Shown one piece after another: positions 49,039-51,232 of a DNA stretch of 64,000 nucleotides. Position 1 is the first letter of the stretch; every line of letters begins with the position of its first letter. The notes below the pieces were generated by a model. The model was given only the letters and a program-made list of their open reading frames with translations, was not told where the DNA came from and made no database searches. The translations under genes and the position numbers were made by a program. This DNA comes from Halobaculum sp. MBLA0143 (GTDB lineage Archaea; Halobacteriota; Halobacteria; Halobacteriales; Haloferacaceae), in contig NZ_JBGKAC010000001.1 of the NCBI RefSeq assembly GCF_041361465.1, positions 1,736,001 to 1,800,000 on the forward strand, given 5' to 3'.

Positions 49039-49572
49039 ATGGACGAGACACCGGGTGGCCTCCGTTCCGGGCCAGCCTCGCCGAACGACGGCGACGACAC
49101 GGTCTCACTGGCGGAGTCGTACACGGAGATGACGGAACTGCTGCTCCCGAACGACACGAACAACCTGGGACGCGCGCTGGGTGGCGCCGTACTCCACTGG
49201 ATGGACATCTGTGGCGCGATCGCCTCCATGCGGTTCTCCTCGAAGCAGTGTGTGACGGCGTCGATGGACCACGTCGACTTCATCAGCCCCATCGACCTCG
49301 GCGAGGTGGCCGTCATCGAGGGGTACGCGTTCGGCACCGGACGGACGAGCATCGACGTGAAGGTGGACGTACGCGCAGAGAACCCCCAGACCGGCGAGGT
49401 TCGAGAGACGACCAGCTCCTTCTTCAGCTTCGTCGCCTTGGGCGAGGAGGGTCGCCCGGCGGAGGTGCCGGAACTCGGCTGTCCGACCGCCGAGGAGGCG
49501 GCGCTCCGCGAGGAGGCCATCGAAGAGCGCCGCAGCCGACTGGAGGACGTGGCCGACCGACTCGACGACTGA
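49039..49572 (+). CDS. Hotdog-fold acyl-CoA thioesterase
   Basis: 177 aa. After an acidic N-terminal tail, TEMTELLLPNDTNNLGRALGGAVLHWMDICGAIASMRFSSKQCVTASMDHVDFISPIDLGEVAVIEGYAFGTGRTSIDVKVDVRAENP is the BFIT/YciA-type acyl-CoA thioesterase signature: the N-x-x-G-x-x-x-G-G helix motif and the catalytic Asp of WMD. It hydrolyses acyl-CoA to free acid and CoA. A C-terminal helix (AALREEAIEERRSRLEDVADRL) follows. Single gene; the downstream region is non-coding repeats. Confidence 0.93.
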   Translation: MDETPGGLRSGPASPNDGDDTVSLAESYTEMTELLLPNDTNNLGRALGGAVLHWMDICGAIASMRFSSKQCVTASMDHVDFISPIDLGEVAVIEGYAFGTGRTSIDVKVDVRAENPQTGEVRETTSSFFSFVALGEEGRPAEVPELGCPTAEEAALREEAIEERRSRLEDVADRLDD

Positions 49573-49597
49573 GCCTCGTTCCCGTTCGAGCCGACGA

Positions 49598-49657
49598 CTG
49601 GCGGCGCTCGACTGACCGAGTCGGGGGCTGGTGCCACTCGACTGATCGAGTCGGCGA
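49598..49657. repeat. 30-bp direct repeat with internal dyad, two copies
   Basis: Copies at 49598-49627 and 49628-49657, imperfect. Each contains an inverted repeat: CGACT/AGTCG in copy one, ACTCGA/TCGAGT in copy two. Confidence 0.7.
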
Positions 49658-49948
49658 CTGATCTCTCTCCTTCCTCCACCGCGTCGCTTCCGAGATTTGA
49701 CCACCCCCTACCGAGATCTGGTATCCCCCTCCGAATCTGACTACCGGGTGGCGAGAACGACTGTCCGTTTCCCGTTCGTCGTCTATTACCGAGACGACAG
49801 TCCCATAATGAAAGCGGTCGTCTGTAGGGATGCGAAGAACTACGAGGCAGAAGACGACTGGTTGGACACCCCGAACGCGAGGAGAGTCGACGCGGACGCG
49901 GCCCCGTCGTGTGACTCGGTCTGTCGAACGGTCCGCGTCACCCCGACT

Positions 49949-50065
49949 CGCCCGGTCGCCGTCGCCCCACGGCGACCGGGCGCCGCCTGCGTCGGCGGTC
50001 CGTCGCCCCACGGACCGCCGCTCCGACAGGTTCGTGGCTCGGCCGCCGTCGCCCCACGGCGGCCG
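49949..50065. repeat. Array of three perfect hairpins with identical CGCCCC loops
   Basis: Hairpin 1: stems 49949-49962 and 49969-49982 (14 bp). Hairpin 2: 49993-50003 and 50010-50020 (11 bp). Hairpin 3: 50040-50049 and 50056-50065 (10 bp). The core CCGT-CGCCCC-ACGG is invariant, while the outer stem bases differ between hairpins yet remain fully paired. Centre-to-centre distances are 41 and 46 bp. Confidence 0.92.
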
Positions 50066-50092
50066 TGTTCTCTCTCAGATCAGCTCTCCGAG

Positions 50093-51232
50093 CTACGGCT
50101 GCGGTCGACGGCCGAGCGTCACGTCTACCGTCACCCGTTGGCCGTCGCGGACGACCGTCAGCGGGACGGTGTCTCCCGGGTCGGTCTCCAGTGCGAGGTA
50201 GTTCGAGAGGTCCGCCTGTGTCTCGACGTCTCGGTCCCCGATTCCGACGAGCACGTCCCCGCCGGTGGGGACCGCGACACCGCGGCGCACCTGGCGGTCG
50301 GTCGCCGGCTCCAGACTGCCGCCGGTGGGCCCGCCGGAGACGACTCTGGTGACGATCAGCCCGGCCACGTCGGAGAGCCCGTACACCTCGGCCGCGGTAG
50401 GGGTCACCTCCACGATCCCGACGCCGAGGTAGGCGTGTCGGAACTCCCCGTCGGCGATCAGTCTGGGGACGACCCGCTTCGAGAGCGCCGCGGAGATGCC
50501 GAAGCCGATGTTCTCCCCCCCGGCGGAGGAGGCGACCGCGGCCACCTCGCCGCCGGCGGTGACGATCGGACCGCCGCTGTTGCCGGGGTTCAACGCGGCG
50601 TCCGTCTGGACCGCGTCCGGAATCGAGAAGTTGTTGGGCGCGGGCAGCAGTCGGTCGACGCCGCTGACGATCCCGCGGGAGGCCGATCCGCCGAGGTCGA
50701 ACGGCGAGCCGATGGCGAGCACCTCCGTGCCGACCGGCGGCTCCGGGTCCGTCTCCACCCACGGCAGCGGCGTCGCGGGGTCCGGGCGACTGGCGGGCCG
50801 CAGCACCGCCAGGTCGGAGTACACGTCCGTGCCGACGAGCGTCGCCGACCGCCACTCGTTGCCGCGAAAGCGGAGTCGGTACCGATCGCCGGGCGCCACG
50901 ACGTGTTGGTTCGTCACGACGTGTGGTCCGCCGGGACCGAGTCCGGTGACGAACCCCGAGCCGCTGGCCGCCTGCCCGCCCGGGTCGTACACGAGCACCC
51001 CGACGACGGAGGGAACGGCCTGCTGGTACACCTCGGAGGCGGAGCCGGTCTCGGGCGCTGCCGAGTCGAACGCCGGGCCGGTGTCGCCTCCGGACGCCCC
51101 CGGCGCGTCGGCATCGCCCGTAGTGTCGGCCGCGCCGACGCCGGCGAGCCCGTCACGCTCCATCGCCGCGCAGCCGGCGGTACCGCCGAGGAGTCCCGCC
51201 CCCGCGGCCGCCAGGAACTGTCGTCGTCTCAC
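50093..51232 (-). CDS. HtrA/DegP-like serine protease, Tat lipoprotein
   Basis: 379 aa. N terminus MRRRQFLAAAGAGLLGGTAGC has the twin Arg and a lipobox Cys (about 21), so it is probably a Tat-exported membrane-anchored lipoprotein. Trypsin-like domain: His in HVVTNQHVV, Asp in DVYSDLAVL, Ser in ALNPGNSGGPIV. It is followed by one PDZ domain (AYLGVGIVEVTPTAAEVYGLSDVAGLIVTRV...GDVLVGIGDRDVETQADLSNYL). Extracytoplasmic protein quality control is the family role. GTG 51232. The Ser/Asp/Gly/Ala linker at about 25-65 is acidic. Confidence 0.92.
   Translation of the reverse strand: MRRRQFLAAAGAGLLGGTAGCAAMERDGLAGVGAADTTGDADAPGASGGDTGPAFDSAAPETGSASEVYQQAVPSVVGVLVYDPGGQAASGSGFVTGLGPGGPHVVTNQHVVAPGDRYRLRFRGNEWRSATLVGTDVYSDLAVLRPASRPDPATPLPWVETDPEPPVGTEVLAIGSPFDLGGSASRGIVSGVDRLLPAPNNFSIPDAVQTDAALNPGNSGGPIVTAGGEVAAVASSAGGENIGFGISAALSKRVVPRLIADGEFRHAYLGVGIVEVTPTAAEVYGLSDVAGLIVTRVVSGGPTGGSLEPATDRQVRRGVAVPTGGDVLVGIGDRDVETQADLSNYLALETDPGDTVPLTVVRDGQRVTVDVTLGRRPQP

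What the first reader, a model, noticed from the sequence alone, without database searches (positions are those of the whole stretch)
49949..50065. Tandem array of three perfect hairpins sharing a CGCCCC loop with covarying stems
Seen: three palindromes (14, 11 and 10 bp stems) with identical CCGT-CGCCCC-ACGG cores; the outer stem bases differ but always pair, the pattern expected when structure rather than sequence is kept. Spacing is 41 and 46 bp. They lie between convergent genes, so could end or stabilise either transcript, or be protein- or RNA-binding elements or a palindromic mobile repeat. No coding frame explains them.
Basis: seen in the sequence. Interest (0 to 1): 0.72.

Follow-up and report, generated by a model that had tools for sequence, protein, structure and literature searches.

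The report
Three-hairpin array between convergent archaeal genes
A salt-loving archaeon carries three perfect hairpins with the same loop but different stems between two genes that face each other; a sister species keeps two of them while the DNA around has decayed, so the structure seems to be kept by selection, most likely as a transcript-end or transcript-stabilising element.

Summary
H1 (49949-49982), H2 (49993-50020) and H3 (50040-50065) are perfect hairpins of 14, 11 and 10 bp with one core, CCGTCGCCCCACGG, and loop CGCCCC. They lie between a convergent thioesterase gene (+) and an HtrA-like protease gene (-), 27 bases past the protease stop codon. The array is unique in this genome: the 12-base core occurs 17 times, but only these three have stems over 5 bp, so it is not a dispersed or mobile repeat. 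A same-genus genome (G002) has two copies at the same junction, aligned with H1 and H3: cores 28 of 28 identical, intergenic DNA left of the array 185 of 366, stem changes partly compensatory. No further copy was found in 170 family, 392 order or 391 class genomes. On the + strand H3 is followed by a pyrimidine tract and AGATC; its G002 partner by a similar tract and GATC. Best reading, moderate confidence: an RNA 3'-end element (terminator and/or stabiliser) of a + strand transcript that limits read-through into the protease gene, with the invariant loop as a recognition site. Transcription, partner and function are not shown. Template-switch repair of palindromes is the main rival.

The parts
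49949..49982 (.). Hairpin H1, 14 bp perfect stem, loop CGCCCC (+) / GGGGCG (-); orthologue G002a in the sister genome
49993..50020 (.). Hairpin H2, 11 bp perfect stem, same loop, with a further imperfect pairing of its flanks in the 151-nt fold; no counterpart in G002
50040..50065 (.). Hairpin H3, 10 bp perfect stem, same loop; orthologue G002b, which has a T.G wobble on the + strand
50066..50082 (+). Pyrimidine-rich tail TGTTCTCTCTC followed by AGATC after H3, terminator-like; G002b is followed by TCTCAGTTTCTCGATC
50093..51232 (-). HtrA-like serine protease (Trypsin_2 + PDZ_2), convergent; 27 bases between its stop codon and H3
49039..49572 (+). 4HBT thioesterase-superfamily gene, convergent, 376 bases from H1

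Best explanation
The array is a locus-specific 3'-end element of the convergent junction. Transcribed on the + strand (thioesterase read-through, or a short intergenic transcript), it folds into three very stable hairpins. The last one, followed by a U/C-rich tail just before the protease stop codon, pauses or ends transcription and protects the RNA 3' end, so that the + strand transcript does not run antisense into the protease gene. Shown: the hairpins, their position, stem compensation, loop invariance and the tail in two species. Inferred: that it is transcribed, that it terminates or stabilises, and that the invariant loop is recognised by a protein or another RNA.
For: Perfect stems in an intergenic convergent junction. 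The 151-nt region folds at z = -5.2 on the + strand and -3.8 on the - strand. Two copies sit at the same place in sister genome G002, with cores 28 of 28 identical against 185 of 366 in the intergenic DNA left of the array. Stem compensation: 7 of 14 pairs change on both sides, covariation score 0.450 vs 0.179 in shuffles, 0 of 500 reaching either. The terminator-like scan of 49500-50200 found three overlapping matches, all on the + strand at H3 (tail TGTTCTCTCT), against 0.3 in shuffles; G002b has TCTCAGTTTCTCGATC. The one imperfect copy, G002b, keeps a full helix as + strand RNA (U.G) but has a mismatch as - strand RNA. In Haloferax volcanii, hairpins were found upstream of 503 3' ends and one tested hairpin ended 59% of transcripts in vivo; T stretches and a downstream AGATC motif were also found (PMC7237163, passages read).
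Against: No uninterrupted T tract follows any hairpin, and H1 and H2 have no such tail; one terminator does not need three hairpins or a fixed loop. Of 14 genomes with the same convergent pair, 12 lack the array, several with gaps of only 12-71 bp, so the junction works without it. The AGATC motif in that paper was from coding regions. The strand evidence rests on one wobble and one tail. No RNA data.
Confidence: 0.42

Rival explanations
1. The perfect stems are made by mutation, not selection: replication template switching at quasi-palindromes rewrites one arm from the other, giving compensated changes. The array is then a decaying local duplicate of a GC-rich palindrome without function.
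For: Narrow distribution (2 of 4 genus genomes, copy number 3 vs 2, spacing not kept). Stems inside this genome are perfect rather than wobble-tolerant. The template-switch mechanism is recalled, not tested.
Against: It explains stems but not the non-palindromic loop, identical in 5 of 5 copies and unchanged between species while the neighbouring DNA fell to about 51% identity. One copy is imperfect and was not rewritten.
Confidence: 0.23
2. The array is the body of a small RNA or a 3'-UTR element whose exposed loops (CGCCCC or GGGGCG) bind a protein or base-pair with other RNAs.
For: Invariant loop with changing stems is the pattern of a recognised loop. A CTATTA box about 25 bases before an ATG at 49808 could start a + strand RNA through the array (read by eye). 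On the - strand the array begins 27 bases after the protease stop, in its likely 3' UTR.
Against: No Rfam match above a gathering score, no promoter data, no partner identified, and the hairpin has not spread to any other locus.
Confidence: 0.22
3. A DNA-level element: a site for a DNA-binding protein or a hairpin-recognising nuclease, possibly as an extruded cruciform.
For: Three repeated palindromes in a non-coding junction; inner arms and loop are fixed in the core. DNA folding was not computed.
Against: Compensated outer stem changes are not needed by a protein that reads double-stranded DNA, and no second site exists in the genome. No HUH, Rep or transposase gene was sought.
Confidence: 0.1
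4. A palindromic mobile repeat (REP-like).
For: Several palindromes with one core in an intergenic region.
Against: Only this locus has stems over 5 bp around the core in the genome; no dispersed copies in relatives.
Confidence: 0.03

Closest known systems
Haloarchaeal hairpin-associated transcript 3' ends (Haloferax volcanii; PMC7237163, passages read)
   Same: Hairpin at a 3' end in a haloarchaeon; pyrimidine/T-containing tail; a GATC-type sequence downstream
   Different: In the passages read the example is a single hairpin and no shared loop is described; here three hairpins with one invariant loop, and no T stretch
Bacterial intrinsic terminators with compensatory stem evolution (PMC5381666, start of abstract seen in a search listing)
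   Same: Stem pairs change in a compensated way; position at a gene end
   Different: Such terminators need a U tract and leave the loop free (recalled); here the loop is fixed and the tail is mixed U/C
REP/BIME palindromic repeats (recalled)
   Same: Palindromes in clusters between genes
   Different: Those are dispersed in many copies; this array is at one locus
Type III toxin-antitoxin antitoxin repeats (recalled)
   Same: Tandem structured RNA units of about 40 nt
   Different: No toxin gene of that kind adjoins; neighbours are a thioesterase and a protease

Membership tests
Intrinsic-type transcription terminator | GC-rich hairpin at a gene end | tested here: met
Intrinsic-type transcription terminator | Uninterrupted U tract directly after the stem | tested here: inconclusive
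   Only H3 has a T-rich tail (TGTTCTCTCT, 6 T in 10, mixed with C); H1 and H2 have none
Intrinsic-type transcription terminator | Transcript 3' ends map to it | not testable with these tools
   no RNA data available
REP/BIME or other mobile palindromic repeat | Many dispersed copies in the genome | tested here: not met
   3 of 17 core sites have stems over 5 bp, all in this array
CRISPR array | Identical repeats of some 23-47 bp with regular unique spacers (definition recalled) | tested here: not met
   Identical part is 14 bp, start-to-start spacing 41 and 46, flanking arms differ
Type III toxin-antitoxin locus | ToxN/AbiQ-type toxin gene next to the repeats (definition recalled) | tested here: not met
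   Pfam: thioesterase and Trypsin_2/PDZ_2 protease
Described structured RNA family (Rfam 15) | Covariance-model match above the gathering score | tested here: not met
   One sub-threshold match, c4-a1b1, 14.5 bits against 46.7 needed

The most novel reading that the evidence does not exclude
A new archaeal structured-RNA motif: a cluster of hairpins with an invariant GC-rich loop, bound by a dedicated protein or RNA partner, that controls the fate of two overlapping convergent mRNAs and so sets HtrA-like protease expression.
Probability: 0.2. Interest if true: 0.55.

Novelty: new variant of a known kind. Interest (0 to 1): 0.36.

Why it matters
How haloarchaea end transcripts at convergent junctions without long U tracts is not well understood, and a hairpin cluster with a fixed loop and changing stems is a ready test piece: stem and loop can be mutated separately in a Haloferax volcanii reporter. 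The caution is that the element is narrow in distribution and most relatives with the same gene pair do without it.

Tried and rejected
Dispersed repeat: rejected. Wider family: model R1, built from the five copies, was run on the own genome (29 matches at E up to 10), 170 family genomes (13 with a match at E up to 0.01) and 392 order genomes (2 with a match at E up to 5e-4). In one search, 5 of the 18 matches are the arrays of G000 and G002; the other 13 (11 in other genomes, 2 in G000) are single sites inside open frames of at least 265 codons, most with other loops or broken stems. Open frames are long everywhere in such GC-rich DNA, the array itself included, so that point is weak. The 2 of 392 are G000 and G261, whose two sites have other loops. 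A 16-base core was sought in 391 class genomes: 22 genomes matched, 24 sites; the 22 sites outside the array have stems of 5-6. G002 is not in the list and gave no match, so it was evidently not in those two samples.

Plasmids: four weak partial matches, all in bacteria. Coding explanation: open frames cross the array, but the frame from 49808 has no Pfam match. Literature: the 13-letter core occurs in one paper, on mycobacterial infection of macrophages, which I did not open. Searches for tandem hairpins, bidirectional terminators or palindromic repeats in archaea or haloarchaea listed no such element (listings with starts of abstracts only). In one search some loci were read in the wrong orientation; one search repeats that check with the strands.

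Full report
Check of the observation. Each folds alone at -20.8 to -31.1 kcal/mol on the + strand with no shuffle of 200 as stable. The 151-nt region folds at z = -5.16 (+) and -3.80 (-). Single perfect hairpins of 9 bp or more are common here (15 in the window including these, 68 in a 400 kb sample; Markov sequence 3-10 per 64 kb). What is unusual is the shared loop in a cluster: in 464 kb it is the only such cluster at stem 7 or more, and none arose in 460 kb of Markov sequence.

Surroundings. Left is a + strand thioesterase-superfamily gene (4HBT, 49039-49572). Right is a - strand Trypsin_2/PDZ_2 protease (50093-51232). There are 27 bases between the protease stop codon and H3, and 376 between the thioesterase stop codon and H1. 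The intergenic region is 520 bp.

Distribution in the genome. The 12-base core CGTCGCCCCACG occurs 17 times in G000 (3,580,614 bases), and 0 times when read backwards. Only the three sites here have stems of 10 or more; the other 14 have 3-5 paired bases. Thus the core alone is a fairly common string in this GC-rich genome and is not the element. The covariance model R1 gives the three copies 44.7-52.3 bits and the next site 31.9; the three copies are part of the model, so their scores are no independent test.

Relatives. In the same-genus genome G002 (contig C45, of the same length as JAHENP010000045.1, a Haloferacaceae MAG found independently) two copies lie at the same junction. Alignment pairs them with H1 and H3; H2 has no counterpart. 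The two 14-base cores are identical at 28 of 28 positions and the outer stems at 23 of 32. The intergenic DNA left of the array is identical at 185 of 366, and that between and around the hairpins at 13 of 30. H1/G002a differ by two compensated pair changes, but of the three outermost pairs of H1 two are broken and one is a wobble in G002a, so its stem is 11 bp. H3/G002b differ by one change that leaves a U.G pair on the + strand and a mismatch on the - strand. Across the five copies 7 of 14 pairs change on both sides; 0 of 500 shuffles reach this or the covariation score, 4 of 500 reach the number of such cells and 15 of 500 the number of further pair types, and slid pairings score lower on every measure. 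With five related rows this is supportive, not a probability.

The other two genus genomes lack the array. G001 has the same convergent pair with a gap of about 160 bp that holds a 23-bp C-rich tandem repeat instead. In G003 the two genes lie on different contigs and are followed by other genes. By my reading of the tables, the two genes lie convergent within 530 bp in 14 of 99 genomes, with gaps of 12 to 526 bp between match ends. Downstream of the protease the core was found in 2 of 30 loci read, G000 and G002. Ten of the 14 convergent pairs are among those 30; the remaining four (G005, G011, G032, G075) have gaps of 16-71 bp, too short for the array. Searches of 170 family, 392 order and 391 class genomes gave no further array.

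Mechanism. Loop kept as sequence and stem kept as pairing point to a folded single strand with a recognised loop. On the + strand, H3 is followed by TGTTCTCTCTC and AGATC, and G002b by TCTCAGTTTCTCGATC. A terminator-like scan found three overlapping matches in 49500-50200, all on the + strand at H3, against 0.3 in shuffles. In Haloferax volcanii, T stretches with a TC, a downstream AGATC motif (in coding regions) and hairpins are linked to 3' ends, and one hairpin terminated 59% of transcripts (PMC7237163, passages). I therefore favour an RNA 3'-end element of the + strand transcript that limits antisense read-through into the protease gene, at 0.42. Not shown: transcription, 3' ends, any binding partner, or why three hairpins are needed. 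The tail is not a true U tract and only H3 has it. The strongest rival is that template switching keeps palindromes perfect; it does not explain the fixed loop.

Verdict. A real, locus-specific structured element, conserved in one sister species, absent from most relatives with the same gene pair, and not found in Rfam or in the paper searches made. Moderate interest.

Noticed in passing
49690-49760; L056 4463-4517; L063 2091-2178: C-rich 20-23 bp tandem repeats (GACCACCCCCTACC-like) in the same intergenic region: two to three degenerate units here (by eye; TRF finds none), 2.8 units in G002, 3.8 units of GTCACCACACCGAACGCGGCTCG in G001. The window copy has no second match in its genome.
   Followed up: partly
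L258 14400-14476: Another C-rich tandem repeat of roughly 24 bp (GGACCACGGTCACTCCGCTCCC) seen by eye elsewhere in the same genome, near what looks like a tRNA gene; such arrays may be a habit of this genus.
   Followed up: no
L258 14576-14610: Perfect 16-bp hairpin tccttgggtgcgcgccTGCggcgcgcacccaagga, with a T run on its left and an A run on its right, the longest stem in the 400 kb sample.
   Followed up: no
49786-49830: CTATTA about 25 bases before ATGAAAGCGGTC, a possible promoter of a leaderless small gene or of a + strand RNA running into the array; the frame has no Pfam match and is not clearly conserved in G002.
   Followed up: partly
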